NCBI GenBank assembly: GCA_964017185.1
Contig: OZ024876.1
Location: forward strand, 13,951,726 to 14,015,725
Direction of reading: 5' to 3'
Length of the DNA stretch: 64,000 bases
Source of the DNA: Rugalucina vietnamica
Lineage: Eukaryota > Mollusca > Bivalvia > Lucinida > Lucinidae
This document shows positions 14,753 through 61,775 of the stretch, one piece after another (the first letter of the stretch is position 1; the number at the start of each line of letters is the position of its first letter). The notes below the pieces were generated by a model. That model was not told where the DNA came from, made no database searches, and saw nothing but the letters and a program-made list of their open reading frames with translations. Both the position numbers and the translations under genes were made by a program.

Positions 14753-14909
14753 ATGGGTGAAGTTAGCCGAAGTAGCCTGACCAGCCGAGGTAGGCTACTT
14801 CGGCTGGCCGGAGTAGCCTGACCAGCCGAGGTAGGCTACTTCGGCTGGCCGGAGTAGCCTGACCAGCCGAAGTAGCAGAAATTGCTGGCATATGTAGCCG
14901 AAACAGCCG
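14753..14909 (+). repeat. Left outer domain of the terminal inverted repeat
   Basis: This 157-bp domain contains a 41-bp unit (AGTAGCCTGACCAGCCGAGG then TAGGCTACTTCGGCTGGCCGG) in about 2.5 copies. Each unit is itself rich in inverted AGTAGCC/GGCTACT motifs. By my reading the domain is base-for-base identical to the inverse of 43971-44127. Confidence 0.92.
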
Positions 14910-17900
14910 CATTGACGTGCGCGGAGTTTAGGGAGCAAGCGACCTAGTGGGATTTACAGTAGAAGGGATGTACTTTCAGACCACATAAGCGGCTATGTAG
15001 GGAAAACTTTGATGACCGAAAATGGAAATTTCTGTATAGTATTGCAATGTGTCGGTACCAACACGGGCTGGTTTCTCACGGAACCCCACCGAGTTTAGGG
15101 AGTTCGAGACCCAGTGGGGCTTGTAGTCTATACAAGTGCCTTTACAGCCCATAGGTCGGTTATATTGGGAAAACTCTGGTTTGTCGGAAATTTCAACTCA
15201 AACATTGGGAAACGTGAACATTCATGGGTTTGCGGGTGGGGTAAGAGGCACCCCTGTCATTGACGTGCGCGGAGCTTAGGGAGCAAGCGACCTAGTGGGA
15301 TTTACAGTAGAAGGAATGTACTTTCAGACCACATAAGCGGCTATGCCGGGAAAACTCTAGTTTTCGAGAAATAGGGGTACAAAAATGACAAAAAATGGAA
15401 ATTTCTGTATAGTATTGCAATGTGTCGGTACCAACTCGGGCTGGTTTCTCACAGAACCCCACCGAGTTTAGGGAGTTCGAGACCCAGTGGGTCTTGTAGT
15501 CCATACAAGTGCCTTTACAGCCCATAGGTCGGTTATACTGGGAAAACTCTGGTTTGTCGAAAATTTCAACTCAAACATTGGGAAACGTGAACATTCATGG
15601 GTTTGGGGGTGGGGTATAAGGCACCCCTGTCATTGACGTGCACGGAGTTTAGGGAGCAAGCGACCTTGTGGGATTTACAGTAGAAGGGATGTATTTTCAG
15701 ACCACATAAGCGGCTATGCCGGGAAAACTCTAGTTTTCTAGAAATAGGGGTACAGAAATGACCAAAAATGGAAATTTCTGTACAGTTTTGCAATGTGTTG
15801 GTACCAACTCGGGCTGGTTTCTCACAGAACGCCACCGAGTTTAGGGAGTTCGAGACCCAGTGGGGCTTGTAGTCCATACAAGTGCCTTTACAGCCCATAG
15901 GTCGGTTATACTGGGAAAACTCTGGTTTGTCGGAAATTTCAACTCAAACATTGGGAAACGTGAACATTCATGGGTTTGGGGGTGGGGTAAGAGGCACCCC
16001 TGTCATTGACGTGCGCGGAGTTTAGGGAGCAAGCGACCTCGTGGGATTTACAGTAGAAGGAATGTACTTTTAGACCACATAAGCGGCTATGCCGGGAAAA
16101 CTCTAGTTTTCGAAAAAATAGGGGTACAAAAATGACCAAAAATGGAAATTTCTGTACAGTATTGCAATGTGTCGGTACCAACTCGGGCTGGTTTCTCACA
16201 GAACCCCACCGAGTTTAGGGAGTTCGAGACCCAGTGGGGCTTGTAGTCCATACAAGTGCCTTTACAGCCCATAGGTCGGTTATACTGGGAAAACTCTGGT
16301 TTGTCGGAAATTTCAACTCAAACATTGGGAAACGTGAACATTCATGGGTTTGGGGGTGGGGTAAGAGGCACCCCTGTCATTGACGTGCGCGGAGTTTAGG
16401 GAGCAAACGACCTTGTGGAATTTACAGCAGAAGGGACGTACTTTTAAATCACATGAGCGGCTATGCCGGGAAAACTCTAGTTTTCGAAAAAATAGGGGTA
16501 CAAAAATGACCGAAAATGGAAACTTCTGTACAGTATTGCAATGTGTCGGTACCAACTCGGGCTGGTTTCTCACAGAACCCCACCGAGTTTAGGGAGTTCG
16601 AGACCCAGTGGGCCTTGTAGTCCATACAAGTGCCTTTACAGCCCATAGGTCGGTAATACTGGGAAAACTCTGGTTTGTCGGAAATTTCAACTCAAACATT
16701 GGGAAACGTGAACATTCATGGGTTTGGGGCTGGGGTATGAGGCACCCCTGTCATTGACGTGCGCGGAGTTTAGGGAGCAAGCGACCTAGTGGGATTTACA
16801 GTAGAAGGGATGTACTTTCAGACCATATAAGCGGCTATGTCGAGAAAACTCTGGTTTTCGAGAAATAGGGGTACAAAGATGACCGACAATGGAAATTTCT
16901 GTACAGTATTGCAATGTGTCGGTACCAACTCGGGCTGGTTTCTCACAGAACCCCACCGAGTTTAGGGAGTTCGAGACCCAGTGGGGCTTGTAGTCTATAC
17001 AAGGGCCTTTACAGCCCATAGGTCGGTTATACTGGGTAAACTCTGGTTTGTCGGAAATTTCAACTCAAACATTGGGAAACGTGAACATTCATGGTTTTGG
17101 GGGTGGGGTAAGAGGCACCCCTGTCATTGACGTGCGCGGAGATTAGGGAGCAAGCGACCTAGTGGGATTTACAGTAGAAGGAATGTACTTTCAGACCACA
17201 TAAGCGGCTATGCCAGGAAAACTCTAGTTTTCGAGAAATAGGGGTACAAAAATGACCAAAAATGGAAATTTCTGTATAGTATTGCAATGTGTCGGTACCA
17301 ACTCGGGCTGGTTTCTCACTGAACCCCACCGAGTTTAGGGAGTTCGAGACCCAGTGGGTCGTGTAGTCCATACAACTGCCTTTACAGCCCATAGGGCGGT
17401 TATACTGGGAAAACTCTGGTTTGTCGAAAATTGCAACTCAAACATTGGGAAACGTGAACATTCATGGGTTTGGGGGTGGGGTATGAGGCACCCCTGTCAT
17501 TGACGTGCGCGGAGATTAGGGAGCAAGCGACCTAGTGGGATTTACAGAAGAAGGAATGTACTTTCAGACCACATAAGCGGCTATGCCGGTTAAACTCTAG
17601 TTTTCGAAATAATAGGGGTACAAAAATGACCAAAAATGGAAATTTCTGTACAGTATTGCAATGTGTCGGTACCAACTCGGGCTGGTTTCTCACAGAACCC
17701 CACCGAGTTTAGGGAGTTCGAGACCCAGTGGGTCTTGTAGTCCATACAAGTGCCTTTACAGCCCATAGGTCCGTTATACTGGGAAAACTCTGGTTTGTCG
17801 GAAACTTCAACTCAAACATTGGGAAACGTGAACATTCATGGGTTTTGGGGTGGGGTATGAGGCACCCCTGTCATTGACGTGCGCGGAGTTTAGGGAGCAA

Positions 17901-20610
17901 GCGACCTAGTGGGATTTACAGTAGAAGGGATGTACTTTCAGACCATATAAGTGGCTATGTCGGGAAAACTCTGGTTTTCGAGAAATAGGGGTAAAAAGAT
18001 GACCGAAAATGGAAATTTCTGTATAGTATTGCAATGTGTCGGTACCAACTCGGGCTGATTTCTCACAGAACCCCACCGAGTTTAGGGAGTTCGAGACCCA
18101 GTGGGGCTTGTAGTCTATACAAGTGCCTTTACAGCCCATAGGTCGGTTATACTGGGAAAATTCTGGTTTGTCGGAAATTTTAACTCAAACATTGGGAAAC
18201 GTGAACATTCATGGTTTTGGGGGTGGGGGTTTTGGGTTTAGGCACCCCTGTCATTGACGTGCGCGGAGTTTAGGGAGCAAGCGACCTAGTGGGATTTACA
18301 GTAGAAGGAATGTACTTTCAGACCACATAAGCGGCTATGCCGGGAAAACTCTAGTTTTCGAGAAATAGGGGTTCAAAAATGACCAAAAATTGAAATTTCT
18401 GTATAGTATTGCAATGTGTCGGTACCAACTCGGGCTGGTTTCTCACAGAACCCCACCGAGTTTAGGGAGTTCGAGACCCAGTGGGTCTTGTAGTCCATAC
18501 AAGTGCCTTTACAGCCCATAGGTCGGTTATACTGGGAAAACTCTGGTTTGTCGAAAATTTCAACTCAAACATTGGGAAACGTGAACATTCATGGGTTTGG
18601 GGGTTGGGTATAAGGCACCCCTGTCATTGACGTGCACGGAGTTTAGGGAGCAAGCGACCTAGTGGGATTTACAGTAGAAGGGATGTATTTTCAGACCACA
18701 TAAGCGGCTATGCCGGGAAAACTCTAGTTTTCTAGAAATAGGGTACAAAAATGACCAAAAATGGAAATTTCTGTACAGTATTGCAATGTGTCGGTACCAA
18801 CTCGGGCTGGTTTCTCACAGAACCCCACCGAGTTTAGGGAGTTCGAGACCCAGTGGGGCTTGTAGTCCATACAAGTGCCTTTACAGCCCATAGGTCGGTT
18901 ATACTGGGAAAACTCTGGTTTGTCGGAAATTTTAACTCAAACATTGGGAAACGTGAACATTCATGGGTTTGGGGATGGGGTATAAGGTACCCCTGTGATT
19001 GGCGAGCTTGGAGTTTAGGGAGCAAGCGACCTAGTGGGATTTACAGTAGAAGGGATGTACTTTTAGACCATATAAGCGGCTATGTCGGGAAAACTCTGGT
19101 TTTCGAGAAATAGGGGTACAAAGATGACCGAAAATGGAAATTTCTGTACAGTATTGCAATGTGTCGGTACCAACTCGGGCTGGTTTCTCACAGAACCCCA
19201 CCGAGTTTAGGGAGTTCGAGACCCAGTGGGGCTTGTAGTCCATACAAGTGCCTTTACAGCCCATAGGTCGGTTATACTGGGAAAACTCTGGTTTGTCGGA
19301 AATTTCAACTCAAACATTGGGAAACGTGAACATTCATTGGTTTGGGGGTGGGGTAAGAGGCACCCCTGTCATTGACGTGCGCGGAGTTTAGGGAGCAAGC
19401 GACCTAGTGAGATTTATAGAAGAAGGAATGTACTTTTAGACCACATAAGCGGCTATGCCGGGAAAACTCTAGTTTTCTAGAAATAGGGGTACAAAAATGA
19501 CCAAAAATGGAAATTTCTGTACAGTATTGCAATATGTCGGTACCAACTCGGGCTGGTTTCTCACAGAACCCCACCGAGTTTAGGGAGTTCGAGACCCAGT
19601 GGGGCTTGTATTCCATACAAGTGCCTTTACAGCCCATAGGTCGGTTATACTGGGAAAACTCTGGTTTGTCGGAAATTTTAACTCAAACATTGGGAAACGT
19701 GAACATTCATGGGTTTGGGGTTGGGTAAGAGGCACCCCTGTCATTGACGTGCGCGGAGTTTAGGGAGCAAACGACCTAGTGGGATTTACAGTAGAAGGGA
19801 CGTACTTTTAAACCACATAAGCGGCTATGCCGGGAAAACTCTAGTTTTCGAAAAAATAGGTGTACAAAAATGACCGAAAATGGAAATTTCTGTACAGTTT
19901 TGCAATGTGTTGGTACCAACTCGGGCTGGTTTCTCACAGAACCCCACCGAGTTTAGGGAGTTCGAGACCCAGTGGGCCTTGTAGTCCATACAAGTGCCTT
20001 TACAGCCCATAGGTCGGTTATACTGGGAAAACTCTGGTTTGTCGGAAATTTCAACTCAAACATTGGGAAACGTGAACATTCATGGTTTTCGGGGTGGGGT
20101 AAGAGGCACCCCTGTCATTGACGTGCGCGGAGATTAGGGAGCAAGCGACCTAGTGGGATTTACAGAAGAAGGAATGTACTTTCAGACCACATAAGCGGCT
20201 ATGCCGGGAAAACTCTAGTTTTCGAGAAATAGGGGTAAAAAAATGACCAAAAATGGAAATTTCTGTATAGTATTGCAATTTGTCGGTACCAACTCGGGCT
20301 GGTTTCTCACAGAACCCCACCGAGTTTAGGGAGTTCGAGACCCAGTGGGCCTTGTAGTCCATACAAGTGCCTTTACAGCCCATAGGTCGGTTATACTGGG
20401 AAAACTCTGGTTTGTCGGAAATTTTAACTCAAACATTGGGAAACGTGAACATTCATGGGTTTGGGGGTGGGGTAAGAGGCACCCCTGTCATTGACGTGCG
20501 CGGAGTTTAGGGAGCAAGCGACCTAGTGGGATTTACAGAAGGGATATACTTTTAGACCACATAAGCGGCTATTTTCGAGAAATAGGGGTACAAACGTGCT
20601 CGCCAATCAC

Positions 20611-20793
20611 AGGGTTACCTTATACCCCACCCCCAAACCCATGAATGTTCACGTTTCCCAATGTTTGAGTTGAAATTTCCGACAAACCAGGTCGGTTATA
20701 CTGGGAAAACTCTGGTTTGTCGGAAATTTCAACTCGAACATTGGGAAACGTGAACATTCATGGGTTTGGGGGTGGGGTATAAGGCACCCCTGT
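20611..20793. repeat. Hairpin within the left arm, copy 1
   Basis: A short monomer piece is inverted against its neighbour. CATGAATGTTCACGTTTCCC...GACAAACCA faces TGGTTTGTC...GGGAAACGTGAACATTCATG. The arms are about 79 bp with a 23-bp loop. Confidence 0.88.
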
Positions 20794-21659
20794 CATTGAC
20801 TTGCACGGAGTTTAGGGAGCAAGCGACCTAGTGGGATGTACAGAAGGGATATACTTTTAGACCACATAAGCGGCTATGCCGAGAAAACTCTAGTTTTCGA
20901 AAAAATAGGGGTACAAAAATGACCAAAAATGGAAATTTCTGTACAGTATTGCAATGTGTCGGTACCAACTCGGGCTGGTTTCTCACAGAACCCCACCGAG
21001 TTTAGGGAGTTCGAGACCCAGTGGGCCTTGTAGTCCATACAAGTGCCTTTACAGCCCATAGGTCGGTTATACTGGGGAAACTCTGGTTTGTCGGAAATTT
21101 CAACTCAAACATTGGGAAACGTGAACATTCATTGGTTTGGGGGTGGGGTAAGAGGCACCCCTGTCATTGACGTGCGCGGAGTTTAGGGAGCAAGCGACCT
21201 AGTGGGATTTACAGAAGAAGGAATGTACTTTCAGACCACATAAGCGGCTATGCCGGGAAAACTCTAGTTTTCGAGAAATAGGGGTACAAAAATGACCAAA
21301 AATGGAAATTTCTGTACAGTATTGCAATGTGTCGGTACCAACTCGGGCTGGTTTCTCACAGAACCCCACCGAGTTTAGGGAGCTCACGACCCAGTGGGGC
21401 TTGTAGTCCATACAAGTGCCTTTACAGCCCATAGGTCGGTTATACTGGGAAAACTCTGGTTTGTCGGAAATTTTAACTCAAACATTGGGAAACGTGAACA
21501 TTCATGGGTTTGGGGGTGGGGTAAGAGGCACCCCTGTCATTGACGTGCGCGGAGTTTAGGGAGCAAGCGACCTAGTGGGATTTACAGAAGGGATATACTT
21601 TTAGACCACATAAGCGGCTATTTTCGAGAAATAGGGGTACAAACGTGCTCGCCAATCAC

Positions 21660-21842
21660 AGGGTTACCTTATACCCCACCCCAAAACCCATGAATGTTCA
21701 CGTTTCCCAATGTTTGAGTTGAAATTTCCGACAAACCAGGTCGGTTATACTGGGAAAACTCTGGTTTGTCGGAAATTTCAACTCGAACATTGGGAAACGT
21801 GAACATTCATGGGTTTGGGGGTGGGGTATAAGGCACCCCTGT
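21660..21842. repeat. Hairpin within the left arm, copy 2
   Basis: The same palindrome as at 20611, 1,049 bp downstream, with the same breakpoints (GGGGTACAAACGTGCTCGCC and ACCAGGTCGG). Confidence 0.88.
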
Positions 21843-22720
21843 CATTGACTTGCACGGAGTTTAGGGAGCAAGCGACCTAGTGGGATGTACAGAAGGGATA
21901 TACTTTTAGACCACATAAGCGACTATGCCGAGAAAACTCTAGTTTTCGAAAAAATAGGGGTACAAAAATGACCAAAAATGGAAATTTCTGTACAGTATTG
22001 CAATGTGTCGGTACCAACTCGGGCTGGTTTCTCACAGAACCCCACCGAGTTTAGGGAGTTCGAGACCCAGTGGGGCTTGTAGTCCATACAAGTGCCTTTA
22101 CAGCCCATACATGTAGGTCGGTTATACTGGGAAAACTCTGGTTTGTCGGAAATTTCAACTCAAACATTGGGAAACGTGAACATTCATGGGTTTGGGGGTG
22201 GGGTATGAGGCACCCCTGTCATTGACGTGCGCGGAGTTTAGGGAGCAAGCGACCTAGTGGGATTTACAGTAGAAGGGATGTACTTTCAGACCATATAAGC
22301 GGCTATGTCGGGAAAACTCTGGTTTTCGAGAAATAGGGGTACAAAGATGACCGAAAAGGGAAATTTCTGTATAGTATTGCAATGTGTCGGTACCAACTCG
22401 GGCTGGTTTCTCACAGAACCCCACCGAGTTTAGGGAGTTCGAGACCCAGTGGGGCTTGTAGTCCATACAAGTGCCTTTACAGCCCATACATGTAGGTCGG
22501 TTATACTGGGAAAACTCTGGTTTGTCGGAAATTTCAACTCAAACATTGGGAAACGTGAACATTCATGGGTTTGGGGGTGGGGTATGAGGCACCCCTGTCA
22601 TTGACGTGCGCGGAGTTTAGGGAGCAAGCGACCTAGTGGGATTTAAAGAAGGGATATACTTTTAGACCACATAAGCGGCTATTTTCGAGAAATAGGGGTA
22701 CAAACGTGCTCGCCAATCAC

Positions 22721-22903
22721 AGGGTTACCTTATACCCCACCCCCAAACCCATGAATGTTCACGTTTCCCAATGTTTGAGTTGAAATTTCCGACAAACCAG
22801 GTCGGTTATACTGGGAAAACTCTGGTTTGTCGGAAATTTCAACTCGAACATTGGGAAACGTGAACATTCATGGGTTTGGGGGTGGGGTATAAGGCACCCC
22901 TGT
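22721..22903. repeat. Hairpin within the left arm, copy 3
   Basis: The third copy of the palindrome, 1,061 bp after copy 2. The 12-bp difference comes from two 6-bp CATGTA insertions. Confidence 0.88.
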
Positions 22904-24223
22904 CATTGACGTGCACGGAGTTTAGGGAGCAAGCGACCTAGTGGGATGTACAGAAGGGATATACTTTTAGACCACATAAGCGGCTATGCCGAGAAAACTC
23001 TAGTTTTCGAAAAAATAAGGGTACAAAAATGACCAAAAATGGAAATTTCTGTACAGTATTGCAATGTGTCGGTACCAACTCGGGCTGGTTTCTCACAGAA
23101 CCCCACCGAGTTTAGGGAGTTCGAGACCCAGTGGGGCTTGTAGTCCATACAAGTGCCTTTACAGCCCATACATGTAGGTCGGTTATACTGGGAAAACTCT
23201 GGTTTGTCGGAAATTTCAACTCAAACATTGGGAAACGTGAACATTCATGGGTTTGGGGGTGGGGTATGAGGCACCCCTGTCATTGACGTGCGCGGAGTTT
23301 AGGGAGCAAGCGACCTAGTGGGATTTACAGTAGAAGGGATGTACTTTCAGACCATATAAGCGGCTATGTCGGGAAAACTCTGGTTTTCGAGAAATAGGGG
23401 TACAAAGATGACCGAAAAGGGAAATTTCTGTATAGTATTGCAATGTGTCGGTACCAACTCGGGCTGGTTTCTCACAGAACCCCACCGAGTTTAGGGAGTT
23501 CGAGACCCAGTGGGGCTTGTAGTCCATACAAGTGCCTTTACAGCCTATACATGTAGGTCGGTTATACTGGGAAAACTCTGGTTTGTCGGAAATTTCAACT
23601 CAAACATTGGGAAACGTGAACATTCATGGGTTTGGGGGTGGGGTATGAGGCACCCCTGTCATTGACGTGCGCGGAGTTTAGGGAGCAAGCGACCTAGTGG
23701 GATTTACAGTAGAAGGGATGTACTTTCAGACCATATAAGCGGCTATGTCGGGAAAACTCTGGTTTTCGAGAAATAGGGGTACAAAGATGACCGAAAAGGG
23801 AAATTTCTGTATAGTATTGCAATGTGTCGGTACCAACTCGGGCTGGTTTCTCACAGAACCCCACCGAGTTTAGGGAGTTCGAGACCCAGTGGGGCTTGTA
23901 GTCTATACAAGTGCCTTTACAGCCCATAGGTCGGTTATACTGGAAAAACTGTGGTTTGTCGGAAATTTCAACTCAAACATTGGGAAACGTGAACATTCAT
24001 GGGTTTGGGGTGGGGTAAGAGACACCCCTGTCATTGACGTGCACGGAGTTTAGGGAGCAAGCGACCTAGTGGGATTTACAGTAGAAGGGATGTATTTTCA
24101 GACCACATAAGCGGCTATGCCGGGAAAACTCTAGTTTTCTAGAAAAAGGGGTACAAAACTGACCAATAATGGAAATTTCTGTACAGTATTGCAATGTGTC
24201 GGTACCAACTCGGGCTGGTTTCT

Positions 24224-24229
24224 CACATG
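24224..24229. other. Orientation-switch junction of the satellite array
   Basis: A minus-oriented monomer stops after GGTTTCTCACA, and a plus-oriented monomer begins within its TGCACGCCAATGACAGG segment. The two parts are from different monomer positions, so the junction is not a simple symmetric palindrome centre. Confidence 0.9.
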
Positions 24230-27200
24230 CACGCCAATGACAGGGGTACCTTATACCCCACCCCAAAACCCATGAATGTTCACGTTTCCCAATGTTTGAG
24301 TTGAAATTTCCGACAAACCAGAGTTTTCCCAGTATAACCGACCTATGGGCTGTAAAGGCACTTGTATGGACTACAAGCCCCACTGGGTCTCGAACTCCCT
24401 AAAGTCGGTGGGGTTCTGTGAGAAACCAGCCCGAGTTGGTACCGACACGTTGCAATACTGTACAGAAATTTCCATTTTTGTACCCCTATTTCTAGAACAC
24501 CAGAGTTTTCCCGGTATAGCCGCTTATCTGGTCTGAAAATACATCCATTCTACTGTAAATCCCACTAGGTCTCTTGCTCCCTAAACTCCGTGCACGTCAA
24601 TGACAGGGGTGCCTTATACCCCACCCCCAAACCCATGAATGTTCACGTTTCCCAATGTTTGAGTTGAAATTTCCGACAAACCAGAGTTTTCCCAGTATAA
24701 CCGAACTATGGAATGTAAAGGCACTTGTATGGACTACAAGCCCCACTGGGTCTCGAACTCCCTAAAGTCGGTGGGGTTCTGTGAGAAACCAGCACGAGTT
24801 GGTACCGACACATTGCAATACTGTACAGAAATTTCCATTTTCGGTCATCTTTGCACCCCTATTTCTCGAAAACCAGAGTTTTCCCGACATAGCCGCTTAT
24901 ATGGTCTGAAAGTACATCCCTTCTTCTGTAAATCCCACTAGGTCGCTTGCTCCCTAAACTCCGTGCACGCCAATGACAGGGGTACCTTATACCCCACCCC
25001 AAAACCCATGAATGTTCACGTTTCCCAATGTTTGAGTTAAAATTTCCGACAAACCAGAGTTTTCCTAGTATAACCGAACTATGGGCTGTAAAGGCACTTG
25101 TATGGACTACAAGCCCCACTGGGTCTCGAACTCCCTATACTCGGTGGGATTCTGTGAGAAACCAGCCCGAGTTGGTACCGACACATTGCAATACTGTACA
25201 GAAATTTCCATTTTTGTTCATTTTTGTACCCCTATTTCTCGAAAACCAGAGTTTTCCCGACATAGCCGCTTATATGGTCTGAAAGTACATCCCTTTTTCT
25301 GTAAATCCCACTAGGTCGCTTGCTCCCTAAACTCCGTGCACGCCAATGACAGGGGTACCTTATACCCCACCCCAAAACCCATGAATGTTCACGTTTCCCA
25401 ATGTTTGAGTTAAAATTTCCGACAAACCAAAGTTTTCCCAGTATAACCGAACTATGGAATGTAAAGGCACTTGTATGGTCTACAAGCCCCACTGGGTCTC
25501 GAACTCCCTATACTCGGTGGGGTTCTGTGAGAAACCAGCCCGAGTTGGTACCGACACATTGCAATACTGTACAGAAATTTCCATTTTTGGTCATTTTTGT
25601 ACCCCTATTTCTAGAACACCAGAGTTTTCCCGGCATAGCCACTTATCTGGTCTGAAAATACATCCCTTCTACTGTAAATCCCACTAGGTCTCTTGCTCCC
25701 TAAACTCCGTGCACGTCAATGACAGGGGTGCCTTATACCCCACCCTCAAAACCATGAATGTTCACGTTTCCCAATGTTTGAGTTAAAATTTCCGACAAAC
25801 CAGAGTTTTCCCAGTATAACCGACCTATGGGCTGCAAAGGCACTTGTATGGACTACAAGCCCCACTGGGTCTCGAACTCCCTAAAGTCGGTGGGGTTCTG
25901 TGAGAAACCAGCCCGAGTTGGTACCGACACATTGCAATACTATACAGAAATTTCCATTTTTGGTCATTGTTGTACCCCTATTTCTCAAATAACTAGAGTT
26001 TTCCCGGCATAGCCGCTTATGTGGTCTAAAAGTACATCCATTCTACTGTAAATCCCACTAGGTCGCTTGCTCCCTAAACTCCGCGCACGTCAATGACAGG
26101 GGTGCCTCTTACCCCACCCCCAAATCCATGAATGTTCACGTTTCCCAATGTTTGAGTTAAAATTTCCGACAAACCAGAGTTTTCCCAGTATAACCGACCT
26201 ATGGGATGTAAAGGCACTTGTATGTACTACAAGCCCCACTGGGTCTCGAACTCCCTAAAGTCGGTGGGGTTCTGTGAGAAACCAGCCCGAGTTGGTACCG
26301 ACACATTGCAATACTATACAGAAATTTCCATTTTTGGTCATTTTAGTACCCCTGTTACTCGAAAACTAGAGTTTTCCCGGCATAGCCGCTTATGTGGTCT
26401 GAAAGTACATTCCTTCTACTGTAAATCCCACTAGGTCGCTTGTTCCCTTAACTCCGCGCACGTCAATGACAGGGGTGCCTCTTACCCCACCCCCAAACCC
26501 ATGAATGTTCACGTTTCCCAATGTTTGAGTTAAAATTTCCGACAAACCAGAGTTTTCCCAGTATAACCGACCTATGGGCTGTAAAGGCACTTGTATAGAC
26601 TACAAGCCCCACTGGGTCTCGAACTCCCTAAATTCGGTGGGGTTCTGTGAGAAACCAGCCCTAGTTGGTACCGACACATTGCAATACTGTACAGAAATTT
26701 CCATTTTTGGTCATTTTTGTACCCCAATTTCTAGAAAACTAGAGTTTTCCCGGCATAGCCGCTTATGTGGTCTGAAAATACATCCATTCTACTGTAAATC
26801 CCACTAGGTCGCTTACTCCCTAAACTCCGTGCACGTCAATGACAGGGGTGCCTTATACCCCACACCCAAACCCATGAATGCTCACGTTTCCCAATGTTTG
26901 AGTTGAAATTTCCGAAAACCAGAGTTTTCCCAGTATAACCGACCTATGGGCTGTAAAGGCACTTGTATGGACTACAAGCCCCACTGGGTCTCGAACTCCC
27001 TAAACTCGATGGGGTTCTGTGAGAAACCAGCCCGAGTTGGTATCGACACATTGCAATACTGTACAGAAATTTCCATTTTCGGTCATTTTTGTACCCCTAT
27101 TTTTTCGAAAACTAGAGCTTTCCCGGCATGGCCGCTCATGTGGTTTAAAAGTACGTCCCTTCTGCTGTAAATCCCACTAGGTCGCTTGCTCCCTAAACTC

Positions 27201-27749
27201 CGCGCACGTCAATGACAGGGGTGCCTCATACCCCACCCCCAAACCCATGAATGTTCACGTTTCCCAATGTTTGAGTTGAAATTTCCGACAAACCAGAGTT
27301 TTCCCAGTATAACCGACCTATGGGCTGTAAAGGCACTTGTATAGACTACAAGCCCCACTGGGTCTCGAACTCCCTAAACTCGGTGGGGTTCTGTGAGAAA
27401 CCAGCCCAAGTTGGTACCGACACATTGCAATACTGTATAGAAATTTCCATTTTCGGTCATCTTTGTACCCCTATTTCTCGAAAACCAGAGTTTTCCCGAC
27501 ATAGCCGCTTATATGGTCTAAAAGTACATCCCTTCTACTGTAAATTCCACTAGGTCGCTTGCTCCCTAGACTCCGTGCTCGCCAATCACAGGGGTACCTT
27601 ATACCCCACCCCCAAACCCATGAATGTTCACGTTTTCCAATGTTTGAGTTAAAATTTCCGACAAACCAGAGTTTTCCCAGTATAACCGACCTATGGGCTG
27701 TAAAGGCACTTGTATGGACTACAAGGCCCACTGGGTCTCGAACTCCCTA

Positions 27750-33700: not shown

Positions 33701-33718
33701 TGGGTCTCGAACTCCCTA
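27750..33718 (+). repeat. 16-monomer higher-order repeat, copy 1
   Basis: Unit variants from about 27.75 kb recur in the same order exactly 5,969 bp later (16 monomers plus 1 bp). Examples are AAAACCTGAGTTTTCCCG at 27855 and 33824, and AACTCGGGGGGGTTCTG at about 30361 and 36330. Differences are rare (for example TTGC versus TCGC near 29047 and 35016). The breakpoints are approximate. Confidence 0.85.
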
Positions 33719-36700
33719 AACTCGGTGGGGTTCTGTGAGAAACCAGCCCGAGTTGGTACCGACACATTGCAATACTGTACAGAAATTTCCATTTTCGGTC
33801 ATCTTTGTACCCCTATTTCTCGAAAACCTGAGTTTTCCCGACATAGCCGCTTATATGGTCTAAAAGTACATCCCTTCTACTGTAAATCCCACTAGGTCGC
33901 TTGCTCCCTAAACTCCGTGCTCGCCAATCACAGGGGTACCTTATACCCCACCCCCAAACCCATGAATGTTCACGTTTCCCAATGTTTGAGTTAAAATTTC
34001 CGACAAACCAGAGTTTTCCCAGTATACCCGACCTATGGGCTGTAAAGGCACTTGTATGGACTACAAGCCTCATTGGGTCTCGAACTCCCTAAACTCGGTG
34101 GGGTTCTGTGAGAAACCAGCCCGAGTTGGTACCGACACATTGCAATACTGTACAGAAATTTCCATTTTTGGTCATTTTTGTACCCCTATTTCTAGAAAAC
34201 TAGAGTTTTCCTGGCATAGCCAATTATGTGGTCTGAAAATACATCCCTTCTACTGTAAATCCCACTAGGTCGCTTGCTCCCTAAACTCCGTGCACGTCAA
34301 TGACAGGGGTGCCTCTTACCCCACCCCCAAAACCATGAATGTTCACGTTTCCCAATGTTTGAGTTGAAATTTCCGACAAACCAGAGTTTTCCCAGTATAA
34401 CCGACCTATGGGCTGTAAAGGCACTTGTATAGACTACAAGCCCCACTGGGTCTCGAACTCCCTAAACTCGGTGGGGTTCTGTGAGAAACCAGCCCAAGTT
34501 GGTACCGACACATTGCAATACTGTACAGAAATTTCCATTTTCGGTCATCTTTGTACCCCTATTTCTCGAAAACCAGAGTTTTCCCGACATAGCCGCTTAT
34601 ATGGTCTAAAAGTACATCCCTTCTACTGTAAATCCCACTAGGTCGCTTGCTCCCTAATCTCCGTGCTCGCCAATCACAGGGGTACCTTATACCCCACCCC
34701 CAAACCCATGAATGTTCACGTTTCCCAATGTTTGAGTTAAAATTTCCGACAAACCAGAGTTTTCCCAGTATAACTGACCTATGGGCTGTAAAGGCACTTG
34801 TATGGACTACAAGCTCCACTGGGTCTCGAACTCCCTAAACTCGGTGGGGTTCTGTGAGAAACCAGCCCGAGTTGGTACCGACACATTGCAATACTATACA
34901 GAAATTTCCATTTTTGGTCATTTTTGTACCCCTGTTTCTCGAAAACTAGAGTTTTCCCGGCATATCCAATTATGTGGTCTAAAAGTACATCCCTTCTACT
35001 GTAAATCCCACTAGGTCGCTTGCTCCCTAATCTCCGTGCTCGCCAATCACAGGGGTACCTTATACCCCATCCCCAAACCCATGAATGTTCACGTTTTCCA
35101 ATGTTTGAGTTAAAATTTCCGACAAACCAGAGCTTTCCCAGTATAACCGACCTATGGGCTGTAAAGGCACTTGTATGGACTACATGCCCCACTGGGTCTC
35201 CAACTCCCTAAACTCGGTGGGGTTCTGTGAGAAACCAGCCCGAGTTGGTACCGACACATTGCAATACTGTACAGAAATTTCCATTTTTGGTCATTTTTGT
35301 ACCCATATTTCTAGAAAACTAGAGTTTTTCCGGCATAGCCGCTGATGTGGTCTGAAAATAAATCCCTCCTACTGTAAATCCCACTAGGCCGCTTGCTCCC
35401 TAACCTCCGTGCACGTCAATGACAGGGGTGCCTTATACCCCACCCCCAAACCCATGAATGTTCACGTTTCCCAATGTTTGAGTTGAAATTTTCGACAAAC
35501 CAGAGTTTTCCTAGTATAACCGACCTATGGGCTGTAAAGGCACTTGTATGGACTACAAGACCCACTGGGTCTCGAACTCCCTAAACTCGGTGGGGTTCTG
35601 TGAGAAACCAGCCCGAGTTGGTACCGACACATTGCAATACTATACAGAAATTTCCATTTTTGGTCATTTTTGTACCCCTATTTCTCGAAAACTAGAGTTT
35701 TCCCGGCATAGCCGCTTATGTGGTCTGAAAGTACATTCCTTCTACTGTAAATCCCACTAGGTCGCTTGCTCCCTAAACTCCGCGCACGTCAATGACAGGG
35801 GTACCTCTTACCCCACCCCCAAAACCATGAATGTTCACGTTTCCCAATGTTTGAGTTGAAATTTCCGACAAACCAGAGTTTTCCCAGTATAACCGACCTA
35901 TGGGCTGTAAAGGCACTTGTATAGACTACAAGCCCCACTGGGTCTCGAACTCCCTAAACTCGGTGGGGTTCTGTGAGAAACCAGCCCGAGTTGGTACCGA
36001 CACATTGCAATACTGTACAGAAATTTCCATTTTCGGTCATCTTTGTACCCCTATTTCTCGAAAACCAGAGTTTTCCCGACATAGCCGCTTATATGGTCTA
36101 AAAGTACATCCCTTCTTCTGTAAATCCCACTAGGTCGCTTGCTCCCTAATCTCCGTGCTCGCCAATCACAGGGGTACCTTATACCCCACCCCCAAACAAA
36201 TGAATGTTCACGTTTCCCAATGTTTGAGTTAAAATTTCCGACAAACCAGAGTTTTCCCAGTATAACCGACCTATGGGCTGTAAAGGCATTTGTATGGAAT
36301 ACAAGCCCCACTGGGTCTCGAACTCCCTAAACTCGGGGGGGTTCTGTGAGAAACCAGCCCGAGTTGGTACCGACACATTGCAAAACTATACAGAAATTTC
36401 CATTTTTGGTCAGTTTTGTACCCCTGTTTCTCGAAAACTAGAGTTTTCCCGGCATAGCCAATTATGTGGTCTAAAAGTACATCCATTCCACTGTAAATCC
36501 CACTAGGTCGCTTGCTCCCTAAACTCCGCGCACGTCAATGACAGGGGTGTCTCATACCCCACCCCCAAACCCATGAATGTTCACGTTTTCCAATGTTTGA
36601 GTTGAAATTTCCGACAAACCAGAGTTTTCCCAGTATTACCGTCCTATGGGCTGTAAAGGCACTTGTATGGACTACAAGGCACACTGGGTCTCGAACTCCC

Positions 36701-39687
36701 TAAACTCGGTGGGGTTCTGTGAGAAACCAGCCCGAGTTGGTACCGACACATTGCAATACTGTACAGAAATTTCCATTTTCGGTCATCTTTGTACCCCTAT
36801 TTCTCGAAAACCAGAGTTTTCCCGACATAGCCGCTTATATGGTCTAAAAGTACATCCCTTCTACTGTAAATCCCACTAGGTCGCTTGCTCCCTAAACTCC
36901 GTGCTCGCCAATCACAGGGGTACCTTATACCCCACCCCCAAACCCATGAATGTTCACGTTTCCCAATGTTTGAGTTAAAATTTCCGTCAAACCAGAGTTT
37001 TCCCAGTAAAACTGACCTATGGGCTGTAAAGGCACTTGTATGGACTACAAGCCCCACTGGGCCTCGAACTCCCTAAACTCGGTGGGGTTCTGTGAGAAAC
37101 CAGCCCGAGTTGGTACCGACACATTGCAATACTGTACAGAAATTTCCATTTTTGGTCATTTTTGTACCCCTATTTCTAGAAAACTAGAGTTTTCCCGGCA
37201 TAGCCGCTTATGTGGTCTGAAAGTACATTCCTTCTTCTGTACATCCCACTAGGTCGCTTGCTCCCTAAACTCCGCGCACGTCAATGACAGGGGTGCCTCT
37301 TACCCCACCCCCAAACCAATGAATGTTCACGTTTCCCAATGTTTGAGTTGAAATTTCCGACAAACCAGAGTTTTCCCTGTATAACCGACCTATGGGCTGT
37401 AAAGGCACTTGTATGGACTACAAGGCCCACTGGGTCTCGAACTCCCTAAACTCGGTGGGGTTCTGTGAGAAACCAGCCCAAGTTGGTACCGACACATTGC
37501 AATACTGTACAGAAATTTCCATTTTTGGTCATTTTTGTACCCCTATTTCTCGAAAACTAGAGTTTTCCCGGCATAGCCGCTTATGTGGTCTGAAAGTACA
37601 TTCCTTCTTATGTAAATCCCACTAGGTCGCTTGCTCCCTAATCTCCGCGCACGTCAATGACAGGGGTGCCTCTTACCCCACCCCCAAAACCATGAATGTT
37701 CACGTTTCCCAATGTTTGAGTTGAAATTTCCGACAAACCAGAGTTTTCCCAGTATAACCGACCTATGGGCTGTAAAGGCACTTGTATGGACTACAAGCCC
37801 CACTGGGTCTCGAACTCCCTAAACTCGGTGGGGTTCTGTGAGAAACCAGCCCGAGTTGGTACCGACACATTGCAATACTATACAGAAATTTCCATTTTCG
37901 GTCATCTTTGTACCCCTATTTCTCGAAAACCAGAGTTTTCCCGACATAGCCGCTTATATGGTCTGAAAGTTCATCCCTTCTACTGTAAATCCCACTAGGT
38001 CGCTTGCTCCCTAAACTCCGCGCACGTCAATGACAGGGGTGCCTCATACCCCACCCCCAAACCCATGAATGTTCACGTTTCCCAATGTTTGAGTTGAAAT
38101 TTCCGACAAACCAGAGTTTTCCCAGTATTACCGACCTATGGGCTGTAAAGGCACTTGTATGGACTACAAGGCCCACTGGGTCTCGAACTCCCTAAACTCG
38201 GTGGGGTTCTGTGAGAAACCAGCCCGTGTTGGTACCGACACATTGCAATACTGTACAGAAATTTCCATTTTCGGTCATTTTTGTACCCCTATTTTTTCGA
38301 AAACTGGAGCTTTCCCGGCATAGCCGCTCATGTGGTTTAAAAGTTCGTCCCTTCTGCTGTAAATCCCACTAGGTCGTTTGCTCCCTAAACACCGCGCACG
38401 TCAATGACAGGGGTGCCTCTTACCCCACCCCCAAACCCATGAATGTTCACGTTTCCCAATGTTTGAGTTGAAATTTCCGACAAACCAGAGTTTTCCCAGT
38501 ATAACCGACCTATGGGCTGTAAAGGCACTTGTATGGACTACAAGCCTCACTGGATCTCGAACTCCCTAAACTCGGTGGGGTTCTGTGAGAAACCAGCCCG
38601 AGTTGGTACCGACACATTGCAATACTATACAGAAATTTCCATTTTTCGTCATTTTTGTACCCCTATTTCTCGAAAACTAGAGTTTTCCCGGCATAGCCGC
38701 TTATGTGGTCTGAAAGTACATTCCTTCTACTGTAAATCCCACTAGGTCGCTTGCTCCCTAAACTCCGCGCACGTCAATGACAGGGGTGCCTCTTACCCCA
38801 CCCCCAAAACCATGAATGTTCACGTTTCCCAATGTTTGAGTTGAAATTTCGGACAAACCAGAGTTTTCCCAGTATAACCGACCTATGGGCTGTAAAGGCA
38901 CTTGTATAAACTACAAGCCCCACTGGGTCTCGAACTCCCTAAACTCGGTGGGGTTCTGTGAGAAACCAGCCCGAGTTGGTACCGACACATTGCAATACTA
39001 TACAGAAATTTCCATTTTCGGTCATCTTTGTACCCCTATTTCTCGAAAACCAGAGTTTTCCCGACATAGCCGCTTATATGGTCTGAAAGTACATCCCTTC
39101 TACTGTTAATCCCACTAGGTCGCTTGCTCCCTAAACTCCGCGCACGTCAATGACAGGGGTGCCTCATACCCCACCCCCAAACCCATGAATGTTCACGTTT
39201 CCCAATGTTTGAGTTGAAATTTCCGACAAACCAGAGTTTTCCCAGTATAACCGACCTATGGGCTGTAAAGGCACTTGTATAGACTACAAGCCCCACTGGG
39301 TCTCGAACTCCCTAAACTCGGTGGGGTTCTGTGAGAAACCAGCCCGAGTTGGTACCGACACATTGCAATACTGTACAGAAATTTCCATTTTCGGTCATCT
39401 TTGTACCCCTATTTCTCGAAAACCAGAGTTTTCCCGACATAGCCGCTTATATGGTCTAAAAGTACATCCCTTCTTCTGTAAATCCCACTAGGTCGCTTGC
39501 TCCCTAATCTCCGTGCTCGCCAATCACAGGGGTACCTTATACCCCACCCCCAAACAAATGAATGTTCACGTTTCCCAATGTTTGAGTTAAAATTTCCGAC
39601 AAACCAGAGTTTTCCCAGTATAACCGACCTATGGGCTGTAAAGGCATTTGTATGGAATACAAGCCCCACTGGGTCTCGAACTCCCTA
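33719..39687 (+). repeat. 16-monomer higher-order repeat, copy 2
   Basis: Near-identical partner of 27750-33718. Confidence 0.85.
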
Positions 39688-42608
39688 AACTCGGGGGGGT
39701 TCTGTGAGAAACCAGCCCGAGTTGGTACCGACACATTGCAAAACTATACAGAAATTTCCATTTTTGGTCAGTTTTGTACCCCTGTTTCTCGAAAACTAGA
39801 GTTTTCCCGGCATAGCCAATTATGTGGTCTAAAAGTACATCCATTCTACTGTAAATCCCACTAGGTCGCTTGCTCCCTAAACTCCGCGCACGTCAATGAC
39901 AGGGGTGTCTCATACCCCACCCCCAAACCCATGAATGTTCACGTTTTCCAATGTTTGAGTTGAAATTTCCGACAAACCAGAGTTTTCCCAGTATTACCGT
40001 CCTATGGGCTGTAAAGGCACTTGTATGGACTACAAGGCCCACTGGGTCTCGAACTCCCTAAACTCGGTGGGGTTCTGTGAGAAACCAGCCCGAGTTGGTA
40101 CCGACACATTGCAATACTGTACAGAAATTTCCATTTTCGGTCATCTTTGTACCCCTATTTCACGAAAACCAGAGTTTTCCCGACATAGCCGCTTATATGG
40201 TCTAAAAGTACATCCCTTCTACTGTAAATCCCACTAGGTCGCTTGCTCCCTAAACTCCGTGCTCGCCAATCACAGGGGTACCTTATACCCCACCCCCAAA
40301 CCCATGAATGTTCACGTTTCCCAATGTTTGAGTTAAAATTTCCGTCAAACCAGAGTTTTCCCAGTAAAACTGACCTATGGGCTGTAAAGGCACTTGTATG
40401 GACTACAAGCCCCACTGGGCCTCGAACTCCCTAAACTCGGTGGGGTTCTGTGAGAAACCAGCCCGAGTTGGTACCGACACATTGCAATACTGTACAGAAA
40501 TTTCCATTTTTGGTCATTTTTGTACCCCTTTTTCTAGAAAACTAGAGTTTATAGCCGCTTATGTGGTCTGAAAGTACATTCCTTCTTCTGTAAATCCCAC
40601 TAGGTCGCTTGCTCCCTAAACTCCGCGCAAGTCAATGACAGGGGTGCCTCTTACCCCACCCCCAAACCAATGAATGTTCACGTTTCCCAATGTTTGAGTT
40701 GAAATTTCCGACAAACCAGAGTTTTCCCTGTATAACCGACCTATGGGCTGTAAAGGCACTTGTATGGACTACAAGGCCCACTGGGTCTCGAACTCCCTAA
40801 ACTCGGTGGGGTTCTGTGAGAAACCAGCCCGAGTTGGTACCGACACATTGCAATACTGTACAGAAATTTCCATTTTTGGTCATTTTTGTACCCCTATTTC
40901 TCGAAAACTAGAGTTTTCCCGGCATAGCCGCTTATGTGGTCTGAAAGTACATTCCTTCTTATGTAAATCCCACTAGGTCGCTTGCTCCCTAATCTCCGCG
41001 CACGTCAATGACAGGGGTGCCTCTTACCCCACCCCCAAAACCATGAATGTTCACGTTTCCCAATGTTTGAGTTGAAATTTCCGACAAACCAGAGTTTTCC
41101 CAGTATAACCGACCTATGGGCTGTAAAGGCACTTGTATGGACTACAAGCCCCACTGGGTCTCGAACTCCCTAAACTCGGTGGGGTTCTGTGAGAAACCAG
41201 CCCGAGTTGGTACCGACACATTGCAATACTATACAGAAATTTCCATTTTCGGTCATCTTTGTACCCCTATTTCTCGAAAACCAGAGTTTTCCCGACATAG
41301 CCGCTTATATGGTCTGAAAGTACATCCCTTCTACTGTAAATCCCACTAGGTCGCTTGCTCCCTTAACTCCGCGCACGTCAATGACAGGGGTGCCTCATAC
41401 CCCACCCCCAAACCCATGAATGTTCACGTTTCCCAATGTTTGAGTTGAAATTTCCGACAAACCAGAGTTTTCCCAGTATTACCGACCTATGGGCTGTAAA
41501 GGCACTTGTATGGACTACAAGGCCCACTGGGTCTCGAACTCCCTAAACTCGGTGGGGTTCTGTGAGAAACCAGCCCGTGTTGGTACCGACACATTGCAAT
41601 ACTGTACAGAAATTTCCATTTTCGGTCATTTTTGTACCCCTATTTTTTCGAAAACTGGAGCTTTCCCGGCATAGCCGCTCATGTGGTTTAAAAGTTCGTC
41701 CCTTCTGCTGTAAATCCCACTAGGTCGTTTGCTCCCTAAACACCGCGCACGTCAATGACAGGGGTGCCTCTTACCCCACCCCCAAACCCATGAATGTTCA
41801 CGTTTCCCAATGTTTGAGTTGAAATTTCCGACAAACCAGAGTTTTCCCAGTATAACCGACCTATGGGCTGTAAAGGCACTTGTATGGACTACAAGCCTCA
41901 CTGGATCTCGAACTCCCTAAACTCGGTGGGGTTCTGTGAGAAACCAGCCCGAGTTGGTACCGACACATTGCAATACTATACAGAAATTTCCATTTTTCGT
42001 CATTTTTGTACCCCTATTTTTCGAAAACTAGAGTTTTCCCGGCATAGCCGCTTATGTGGTCTGAAAGTACATTCCTTCTACTGTAAATCCCACTAGGTCG
42101 CTTGCTCCCTAAACTCCGCGCACGTCAATGACAGGGGTGCCTCTTACCCCACCCCCAAAACCATGAATGTTCACGTTTCCCAATGTTTGAGTTGAAATTT
42201 CCGACAAACCAGAGTTTTCCCAGTATAACCGACCTATGGGCTGTAAAGGCACTTGTATAAACTACAAGCCCCACTGGGTCTCGAACTCCCTAAACTCGGT
42301 GGGGTTCTGTGAGAAACCAGCCCGAGTTGGTACCGACACATTGCAATACTATACAGAAATTTCCATTTTCGGTCATCTTTGTACCCCTATTTCTCGAAAA
42401 CCAGAGTTTTCCCGACATAGCCGCTTATATGGTCTGAAAGTACATCCCTTCTACTGTTAATCCCACTAGGTCGCTTGCTCCCTAAACTCCGCGCACGTCA
42501 ATGACAGGGGTGCCTCATACCCCACCCCCAAACCCATGAATGTTCACGTTTTCCAATGTTTGAGTTGAAATTTCCGACAAACCAGAGTTTTCCCAGTATA
42601 ACCGATCT
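39258..42608 (+). repeat. 9-monomer higher-order repeat, third partial copy
   Basis: The monomer series beginning at 29931 and 35900 recurs here (offset 3,358 bp from 35900). A 7-bp deletion near 40550 shortens the offset to 3,351 bp. The marker AACTCGGGGGGGTTCTG recurs at about 39688. Confidence 0.8.
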
Positions 42609-43970
42609 ATGGGCTGTAAAGGCACTTGTATGGACTACAAGCCCCACTGGGTCTCGAACTCCCTAAACTCGGTGGGGTTCTGTGAGAAACCAGCCCGAGT
42701 TGGTACCGACACATTGCAATACTGTACAGAAATTTCCATTTTTGGTCATTTTTGTACCCCTATTTTTTCGAAAACTAGAGTTTTCCCGGCATAGCCGCTT
42801 ATGTGGTCTAAAAGTACATCCCTTCTACTGTAAATCCCACTAGGTCGCTTGCTCCCTAAACTCCGCGCACGTCAATGACAGGGGTGCCTCTTACCCCACC
42901 CCCAAACCCATGAATGTTCACGTTTTCCAATGTTTGAGTTGAAATTTCCGACAAACCAGAGTTTTCCCAGTATAACCGACCTATCGGCTGTAAAGGCACT
43001 TGTATGGACTACAAGCCCCACTGGGTCTCGAACTCCCTAAACTCGGTGGGGTTCTGTGAGAAACCAGCCCGAGTTGGTACCAACACATTGCAAAACTGTA
43101 CAGAAATTTCCATTTTTGGTCATTTTTGTACCCCTATTTCTAGAAAACTAGAGTTTTCCCGGCATAGCCGCTTATGTGGTCTGAAAATACATCCCTTCTA
43201 CTGTAAATCCCACTAGGTCGCTTGCTCCCTAAACTCCGTGCACGTCAATGACAGGGGTGCCTTATACCCCACCCCAAACCCATGAATGTTCACGTTTCCC
43301 AATGTTTGAGTTGAAATTTTCGACAAACCAGAGTTTTCCCAGTATAACCGACCTATGGGCTGTAAAGGCACTTGTATGGACTACAAGACCCACTGGGTCT
43401 CGAACTCCCTAAACTCGGTGGGGTTTTGTGAGAAACCAGCCCGAGTTGGTACCGACACATTGCAATACTATACAGAAATTTCCATTTTTCGTCATTTTTG
43501 TACCCCTATTTCTCGAAAACTAGAGTTTTCCCGGCATAGCCGCTTATGTGGTCTGAAAGTACATTCCTTCTACTGTAAATCCCACTAGGTCGCTTGCTCC
43601 CTAAACTCCGCGCACGTCAATGACAGGGGTGCCTCTTACCCCACCCGCAAACCCATGAATGTTCACGTTTCCCAATGTTTGAGTTGAAATTTCCGACAAA
43701 CCAGAGTTTTCCCAATATAACCGACCTATGGGCTGTAAAGGCACTTGTATAGACTACAAGCCCCACTGGGTCTCGAACTCCCTAAACTCGGTGGGGTTCC
43801 GTGAGAAACCCGCCCGTGTTGGTACCGACACATTGCAATACTATACAGAAATTTCCATTTTCGGTCATCAAAGTTTTCCCGACATAGCCGCTTATGTGGT
43901 CTGAAAGTACATCCCTTCTACTGTAAATCCCACTAGGTCGCTTGCTCCCTAAACTCCGCGCACGTCAATG

Positions 43971-44127
43971 CGGCTGTTTCGGCTACATATGCCAGCAATT
44001 TCTGCTACTTCGGCTGGTCAGGCTACTCCGGCCAGCCGAAGTAGCCTACCTCGGCTGGTCAGGCTACTCCGGCCAGCCGAAGTAGCCTACCTCGGCTGGT
44101 CAGGCTACTTCGGCTAACTTCACCCAT
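43971..44127 (-). repeat. Right outer domain of the terminal inverted repeat
   Basis: The inverse of 14753-14909 with no difference seen over 157 bp, ending CGGCTAACTTCACCCAT. Confidence 0.92.
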
Positions 44128-44140
44128 CTCTTCTATGCAG
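44128..44140. repeat. Right target-site duplication of the giant element
   Basis: CTCTTCTATGCAG, identical to 14740-14752. Confidence 0.9.
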
Positions 44141-45832: not shown

Positions 45833-46627
<795 letters not shown>

Positions 46628-61692: not shown

Positions 61693-61775
61693 TGTTGATG
61701 TTGCCAGACAAACCTATCTCGGAGGATTCTTTCTTTAGCTTGGGGGTCTGGGGGCTTGCCCCCCAGGCGTCGTAG
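61693..61775. repeat. Extra spacer block of the long telomere-like units, copy 1
   Basis: It contains GGGGGTCTGGGGGCTTGCCCCC, a small GC-rich hairpin, and is absent from the alternate units. The second copy is at 62727-62812. Confidence 0.85.

What the first reader, a model, noticed from the sequence alone, without database searches (positions are those of the whole stretch)
14753..44127. A 29.4-kb satellite array packaged as a single TIR element with a target-site duplication
Seen directly: identical inverted 157-bp ends, 13-bp direct repeats immediately outside, and almost nothing inside except about 78 copies of one 373-bp monomer. Satellites do not normally have defined termini and a target duplication, so the array behaves as a mobile unit or was amplified inside one. 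The outer domain plus inner tandem domain recalls foldback elements (established plan), but the size and duplication length are unusual. Calling it undescribed is inference.
Basis: partly seen in the sequence, partly recalled or inferred. Interest (0 to 1): 0.92.

Follow-up and report, generated by a model that had tools for sequence, protein, structure and literature searches.

The report
Giant jumping palindromes of satellite DNA
An animal-like genome carries dozens of scattered 17-73 kb transposon-like elements that, where read, contain almost nothing but one satellite repeat arranged as a huge palindrome, so here a satellite DNA appears to spread as the body of a mobile element rather than as ordinary centromere-type DNA.

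Summary
The element is window 14751-44129 (ends AGATGGGTGAAG...CTTCACCCATCT). The target duplication is 9 bp (CTTCTATGC), not 13; the extra CT/AG are a target coincidence. It belongs to a family: 145 listed ends in the own genome form 63 inverted pairs, of which 61 are giants (16.9-73.1 kb, 2.77 Mb) and two are satellite-free miniatures. Of 42 elements read, 36 have a perfect 9-bp duplication, one a 10-bp, two have 8 of 9, three none. The satellite tag count (8,158) is about what the elements alone predict (8,355). One central flip junction recurs in 27 elements, once each; all 15 of these whose two flanks were read for one search have their own distinct, perfect 9-bp duplications. So the palindrome is part of what moves. 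Two duplicated copies of one insertion differ by 9 kb, so arrays also turn over in place. Best reading: a non-autonomous Foldback-type (probably Mutator-superfamily) transposon whose arms became giant satellite arrays; closest known Tetris and Tm1. No transposase-bearing partner and no empty site were found.

The parts
14742..14750 (.). left copy of the 9-bp target site duplication CTTCTATGC
   Evidence: length fixed by comparison with 41 other elements
14751..44129 (.). whole element (29,379 bp), A-type
   Evidence: ends AGATGGGTGAAG/CTTCACCCATCT shared by the family
14751..14909 (+). left outer domain (terminal inverted repeat) with about 40-41 bp internal tandem repeats
14910..24228 (+). 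left arm: 373-bp satellite, '+' orientation, including a 1,049-bp higher-order stretch with three 94-bp inverted pieces
24228..24229 (.). central flip junction; unique in the genome for this copy
   Evidence: one genome hit at up to 2 mismatches
24229..43970 (-). right arm: 373-bp satellite, '-' orientation
43971..44129 (-). right outer domain (terminal inverted repeat)
44130..44138 (.). right copy of the 9-bp target site duplication CTTCTATGC

Best explanation
This is one copy of a young, non-autonomous Foldback-type DNA transposon family, probably of the Mutator superfamily. The arms between its terminal inverted repeats have been replaced by, or grown into, two head-to-head arrays of one 373-bp satellite. 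A transposase made elsewhere recognises the outer domain (terminal AGATGGGTGAAGTTAGCC and 40-bp repeats) and integrates the element with a 9-bp duplication. The whole palindromic array, 17-73 kb, travels as the body of the element. After insertion, monomers are gained, lost and reordered mainly within each arm, and in some copies the palindrome centre has been re-cut, giving private junctions. SHOWN: family of ends, 9-bp duplications, palindromic layout in the copies read, shared and private junctions, in-place turnover in one duplicated insertion, a satellite count that the elements alone explain. INFERRED: youth, transposase identity, movement at full size, the mechanism of centre revision.
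For: 145 ends form 63 inverted pairs (neighbouring + then - within 150 kb) on 16 contigs; 61 are 16.9-73.1 kb, two are 215 and 277 bp. Of 42 elements read, 36 have a perfect 9-bp duplication, one 10 bp, two 8 of 9, three none. All 7 elements whose centre was read have a '+' arm directly followed by a '-' arm. The flip junction of C14:14308802 occurs 27 times, once per element: 22 in paired elements and 5 at 10-33 kb from an unpaired end, in both orientations (16/11), with arms of 4.8-44.4 kb in the 22; 15 of 15 of these elements read have distinct perfect 9-bp duplications. Satellite tag: 3,992 forward + 4,166 reverse genome-wide against about 8,355 predicted from the elements alone. Two copies with the same flanks share 7.66 kb of left arm at 99.2% but differ in the right arm and by 9 kb in length. 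27 A/A, 10 B/B and 2 mixed end pairs of 39 show that ends are inherited together.
Against: No element with a transposase gene was found: 0 of 59 MULE-domain hits lie inside a paired element, the nearest to any listed end 61.6 kb away. No empty site was found for the window. Movement at full size is not directly seen: short palindromic seeds that all expanded in place could also share a junction. Three of the 42 elements lack a matching duplication, and the two C14 copies, not among the 42, match only at 8 and 6 of 9 bases in A-rich DNA. The junctions of the window copy, B1 and B3 are each unique, and 20 presumed A-type pairs lack the shared junction, so the centre is not stable in all copies. 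Only six giants were read whole.
Confidence: 0.78

Rival explanations
1. Short seeds: the mobile unit is a small palindromic Foldback element (outer domain, a few monomers, flip, a few monomers, outer domain), and every copy was independently amplified in place to 17-73 kb after insertion.
For: In the A-type elements compared only the outermost 3-4 monomers are collinear while the interior is shuffled; arrays do change in place; the arrays of B1, B2 and B3 are homogenised per element.
Against: None of 63 pairs with exact ends lies between 277 bp and 16.9 kb, where seeds in the course of growth should be found (truncated or unpaired copies are not counted there). A-type monomers fall into 7-8 classes present in at least 4 of 8 elements, more than the 3-4 collinear outer monomers would supply. 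One internal junction sits 4.8-44.4 kb from the ends in 22 paired elements.
Confidence: 0.2
2. Ordinary satellite: the arrays are normal satellite DNA into which, or beside which, a repeat with inverted ends landed by chance.
For: Monomer length (373 bp) and divergence (1.3-5.9% within elements) are ordinary for a satellite.
Against: The satellite tag count equals what the bounded elements predict, and the first 100 listed exact tags all lie inside the first two elements of C1. Both ends point outward with perfect 9-bp duplications in 36 of 42 elements.
Confidence: 0.02
3. Assembly artefact: false palindromes made by fold-back reads or mis-joined arrays.
For: Long inverted arrays are a known source of assembly error (recalled); C14 holds two copies of one insertion that could be uncollapsed haplotypes.
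Against: 61 giant pairs with exact ends and, where read, mostly perfect duplications; the same junction in 27 elements; arms of one element are not identical (mean nearest cross-arm monomer distance 0.65-2.3% in four elements), unlike a fold-back read.
Confidence: 0.03

Closest known systems
Tetris (Drosophila virilis), Foldback transposon; PMC4079207 (abstract, Results section on Tetris and part 1 of the Discussion read)
   Same: Non-autonomous; outer flanking domain followed by a tandem-repeat domain in the inverted repeats; 8-10 bp duplications; assigned by its authors to the Mutator superfamily; associated with satellite arrays; no transposase-bearing copy found.
   Different: Tetris inverted repeats reach 1,735 bp and have a middle domain; only three structurally complete copies; its authors suggest that larger arrays (up to 66 copies of about 220 bp) may have disrupted the element. 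Here 61 bounded pairs of 17-73 kb keep exact ends and, where read, mostly intact duplications, with no middle domain in 7 of 7 centres.
Tm1 Mutator/Foldback family (Meloidogyne); PMC3169594 (abstract, Introduction and TIR-motif section read)
   Same: Composite inverted repeats with variable numbers of short tandem motifs; 9-bp duplications; MITE-like relatives.
   Different: Tandem motif 8-21 bp, 1-9 units; includes transposase-coding members (Phantom-like); no satellite body described in what I read.
Foldback (FB) elements of Drosophila melanogaster (recalled; mentioned in PMC4079207)
   Same: Outer domain plus inner tandem repeats in inverted arms able to fold back.
   Different: FB elements are a few kb with short repeats (recalled); here arms reach tens of kb and meet directly at a flip.
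Mobile-element-carried satellite repeats of the oyster Crassostrea gigas; PMC8268682 (passages read), PMC7492417 (search listing only; its title names Helentrons)
   Same: Satellite-like repeats dispersed genome-wide by DNA transposons; longest element-associated array 89 monomers.
   Different: Helitron-type carriers without paired inverted ends (recalled); single monomers are the commonest form; free-standing arrays also exist (up to 232 monomers).
MITE miDNA4 of Xenopus with an internal satellite (described in the review PMC12628747; passage read)
   Same: Internal tandem array inside a small TIR element.
   Different: Tc1/mariner type; satellite present as one monomer or a variable number of copies; the passage read describes no palindrome.

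Membership tests
Foldback elements / Mutator superfamily (Tetris, Tm1 type) | 9-bp (8-10 bp) target site duplication | tested here: met
   36 of 42 elements perfect 9 bp, 1 with 10 bp, 2 with 8 of 9, 3 without
Foldback elements / Mutator superfamily (Tetris, Tm1 type) | long inverted repeats containing tandem repeats of variable number | tested here: met
   about 40-bp repeats in the outer domain vary in number (L017 and L018); 373-bp repeats fill the arms
Foldback elements / Mutator superfamily (Tetris, Tm1 type) | middle (loop) domain between the arms | tested here: not met
   in 7 of 7 centres read the two satellite arms abut, with no non-satellite stretch of 40 bp or more
Mutator superfamily | MULE-type transposase in an element with the same ends | tested here: inconclusive
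Tetris or Tm1 as named families | sequence similarity of ends or repeats | not tested
   their full sequences were not aligned; the Tm1 motif consensuses read were not compared by alignment with the ends here
Helitron/Helentron | no target site duplication, no paired terminal inverted repeats | tested here: not met
   paired inverted ends and 9-bp duplications; the defining absence is recalled
Classical satellite DNA | tandem arrays free of mobile-element boundaries | tested here: not met
   tag count is explained by the bounded elements alone; small free arrays or diverged monomers not excluded

The most novel reading that the evidence does not exclude
The satellite palindrome is not passive cargo but the way the element lives: array amplification is coupled to the transposition cycle (for example gap repair or replication of an excised fold-back intermediate), so new copies are born giant within a size window (17-73 kb, no exact pair between 0.3 and 17 kb), and the genome's main or only source of this satellite is the transposon. 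That would make it a self-amplifying mobile satellite that codes for no protein.
Probability: 0.2. Interest if true: 0.9.

Novelty: new variant of a known kind. Interest (0 to 1): 0.74.

Why it matters
How satellites disperse between chromosomes is an open question, and Tetris was read as a path in which growing arrays disrupt the element. Here elements of up to 73 kb keep exact ends and, where read, mostly perfect target duplications, so growth and mobility seem to coexist. [quoted passage not shown] these would be natural giants, and very long natural palindromes as well. Datable insertions each carrying an array would allow direct measurement of satellite turnover and palindrome revision.

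Tried and rejected
The 13-bp duplication was rejected: it is 9 bp plus a coincidental CT/AG in the target. The first thought that every element has its own flip junction (from five elements; the window junction is unique) was corrected: one junction is shared by 27 elements, while those of the window copy, B1 and B3 are unique; the A1, B2 and U42 junctions were not searched. I first took C14:14308802 and C14:14704425 for sister transpositions because of a 99.2% collinear left arm; one search showed shared flanks, so they are duplicated copies (or retained haplotypes) of one insertion and are used only as evidence of in-place turnover. A transposase inside the arrays was not found: the non-satellite inserts are 2.2 kb in A1 (TG...CA ends with a GTACC repeat at both edges by eye, solo-LTR-like), 0.9 kb in B2, and 1.0 and 4.2 kb in B3; the B2 and B3 inserts were not identified. 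Of 19 unpaired ends, 10 (in 9 stretches) were examined as possible autonomous copies: 8 lead into satellite that fills most of their 10-kb stretch (two of them after a B-type segment), the second end of L045 into satellite up to the end of its stretch (1.9 kb), the first end of L045 into a 3.0-kb array. The B-type subterminal 0.74 kb is interrupted by stops in all six frames (by eye); its genome search scored only 40 of 335 candidates, of which 38 lie beside listed ends and 2 (C16:10913461, C6:49285926) where partners of unpaired ends would be. Similarity between outer domain and monomer: none above shuffles (97 of 200 shuffles as good). Empty site for the window: the joined flanks found only the window itself over the insertion area, and other copies of the flanking retroelement-like sequence match query bases 1-99 at most (40 of 2,415 candidates scored). 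The organism was not identified. Paper searches, judged by titles and starts of abstracts unless a paper is cited as read: (open-access PMC library only).
Full report
WHAT IS THERE. The window element is 29,379 bp (14751-44129). Both ends carry the same outer domain (159 bp per end), and the ends are identical for 248 bp, which includes the first satellite bases. Each outer domain contains about 40-41 bp tandem repeats. Inside is only a 373-bp satellite, itself a diverged dimer (59% between halves in the best of 373 phases; local score 38 against at most 25 in 200 shuffles). The satellite is '+' from the left outer domain to 24228 and '-' from 24229 to the right outer domain, so the element is a head-to-head palindrome of tandem arrays with arms of about 9.3 and 19.7 kb. 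The left arm holds a 1,049-bp higher-order stretch with three small 94-bp inverted pieces. No tRNA was found in the window, and its only Rfam match lies outside the element.

TARGET DUPLICATION. Comparison with other copies shows, however, that the bases AG (left) and CT (right) belong to the element, and the duplicated target is 9 bp (CTTCTATGC). Of 42 elements read at both ends (40 giants including the window, and 2 miniatures), 36 have a perfect 9-bp duplication, 1 a 10-bp one, 2 match at 8 of 9, and 3 do not match: C3:76237742, C9:54697236 and the 215-bp miniature. Two further copies on C14, not among the 42, match at 8 and 6 of 9 in A-rich DNA. Joining the window flanks with one 9-bp copy removed gives the reading ADELFYADDK, a reverse-transcriptase-like stretch (motif recalled). 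That is an indirect sign of the original site; a true empty copy was not found (other copies match query bases 1-99 at most; 40 of 2,415 candidates scored).

A FAMILY. The window lies in a 1.09-Gb assembly of 47 contigs. Two exact searches with the corrected end, split by the neighbouring base, list 68 and 76 ends; with one end known only this gives 145. They form 63 pairs (a + end followed by a - end within 150 kb) on 16 contigs and leave 19 unpaired ends. Of the pairs, 61 are 16,877-73,057 bp (median 44.7 kb, sum 2.77 Mb) and two are 215 and 277 bp. The giant sizes fit a uniform distribution between bounds taken from the data (KS p 0.88), with nothing from 277 bp to 16.9 kb. Ten unpaired ends were looked into: eight lead into satellite filling most of a 10-kb stretch, and the two of L045 into 3.0 kb and at least 1.9 kb of it.

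TWO SUBFAMILIES. A-type ends (as in the window) pass directly from the outer domain into satellite; B-type ends have about 740 bp of apparently non-coding subterminal sequence first, then the same satellite. Of 39 giant pairs typed by sequence (window not counted), 27 are A/A, 10 B/B and 2 mixed (C4:31079151 and C7:65574282), the mixed ones with perfect 9-bp duplications. Ends are therefore inherited together, with occasional exchange between subfamilies, most simply before insertion (inference).

THE PALINDROME CENTRE. In all 7 elements whose centre was read (window, A1, B1, B2, B3, S1, U42) a '+' arm is followed by a '-' arm with no non-satellite loop of 40 bp or more, at different monomer phases. 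The window's junction is unique in the genome, as are those of B1 and B3; A1, B2 and U42 were not searched. The S1 junction, by contrast, occurs 27 times at up to 2 mismatches (21 exact), once per element: 22 lie inside paired elements and 5 lie 10-33 kb from an unpaired end. The arms around it in the 22 measure 4.8-40.5 and 6.4-44.4 kb. All 15 of these elements that are among the 42 have a perfect 9-bp duplication, all different. None of the 19 pairs known to carry a B-type end holds it; of the other 42 pairs, taken as A-type though not all were typed by sequence, 22 do and 20 do not. A shared junction deep inside many separate insertions means that the palindromic centre was carried by transposition. 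Private junctions then read as later revision of an unstable palindrome centre (inference).

ARRAY EVOLUTION (468 monomers of 13 elements or parts). In the A-type elements compared, the outermost 3-4 monomers are collinear between elements and between arms, while the interior is a shuffled use of shared monomer classes. Mean divergence within A-type elements (3.7-5.3%) is no lower than between them (3.9-5.1%), although the nearest relative of a monomer lies in its own element in 8-79% of cases. In B1, B2 and B3 arrays are homogenised per element: 98-100% of monomers have their nearest relative in the same element; for the two other B-type stretches, U44 and U42, this is 82% and 24%. In the four elements tested (A0, B1, B2, B3) the nearest relative within the element is in the other arm for only 2-24% of monomers (B3 alone has identical cross-arm pairs, 7), so turnover acts mainly within arms. 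C14:14308802 (22.2 kb) and C14:14704425 (31.1 kb) share flanks (97.5% over 1.5 kb on the right, 97 of 97 bases on the left) and are duplicated copies of one insertion; the 7.66 kb of left arm read in both is collinear at 99.2%, but the right arms diverge after three monomer lengths and the totals differ by 9 kb. They share the junction. Arrays thus turn over in place; one pair is a small sample.

CONFINEMENT. A 28-bp satellite tag (up to 1 mismatch) occurs 3,992 times forward and 4,166 times reverse, control 0. From its density in six fully read elements, 6,371 are predicted for the 61 pairs and about 1,985 for 19 unpaired ends if each stands for an element of mean size (an assumption), 8,355 in all. 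The first 100 listed places, all exact matches on C1, fall in its first two elements, with none before or between. The satellite hardly exists outside the transposon; small free arrays or diverged monomers are not excluded.

HOW IT MOST LIKELY WORKS. Shown: ends, duplications, layout, shared centre, tag count, turnover. Inferred: a transposase supplied in trans, probably of the Mutator superfamily given the 9-bp duplication and Foldback-like ends, binds the outer domain and moves the whole palindrome. In Galileo, repeats in the long inverted repeats are transposase binding sites (PMC3688188, search listing; discussed in PMC4079207), so the 40-bp repeats here may act likewise (analogy). No partner was found: 59 MULE-domain hits, none inside a paired element.

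AGAINST THIS READING. Full-size movement is inferred. Short seeds expanding in place would also keep outer monomers and a common centre; the size gap and the number of shared monomer classes speak against it but do not exclude it. Only six giants were read whole. Closest known is Tetris (PMC4079207), whose authors suggest that larger arrays may have disrupted transposition; here large arrays sit between exact ends in 61 pairs. Ten searches of the open-access library, judged mostly by titles and starts of abstracts, listed no giant, bounded, palindromic satellite transposon; subscription papers and the species' own genome paper were not available, so 'undescribed' is limited to that.

Noticed in passing
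window 60922-63686: Tandem units of about 1,050 bp (82-84% alike) mixing telomere-like GGTTAG/TTAGGG blocks with GTCGACAA octamer blocks; the array may continue beyond the window.
   Followed up: partly
window 9264-9331, minus strand: SECIS_1 selenocysteine insertion element above the Rfam gathering score (39 vs 35 bits), so a selenoprotein gene may lie on the minus strand at higher coordinates; gene not sought.
   Followed up: no
window 14501-14750 and 44139 onward: The insertion target looks like a decayed reverse-transcriptase-like retroelement; its first 98 query bases have many relatives (2,415 first-look candidates, 40 scored).
   Followed up: partly
C14:14308802-14330965 and C14:14704425-14735543 (L008, L109-L113, L005, L006): Same flanks 395 kb apart: a segmental duplication or two haplotypes retained in the assembly.
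   Followed up: partly
L045 (C6:66280584-66290583): Two element ends in the same orientation 7.4 kb apart, the first followed by only about 3.0 kb of satellite; a nested or truncated copy.
   Followed up: no
L032 (A1), L036-L039 (B3), B2 interior: Nested inserts inside the arrays: a 2.2-kb solo-LTR-like piece in A1, 0.9 kb in B2, 1.0 and 4.2 kb in B3.
   Followed up: partly
window 45886-46516: Perfect (ATCT) microsatellite of 158 units.
   Followed up: no
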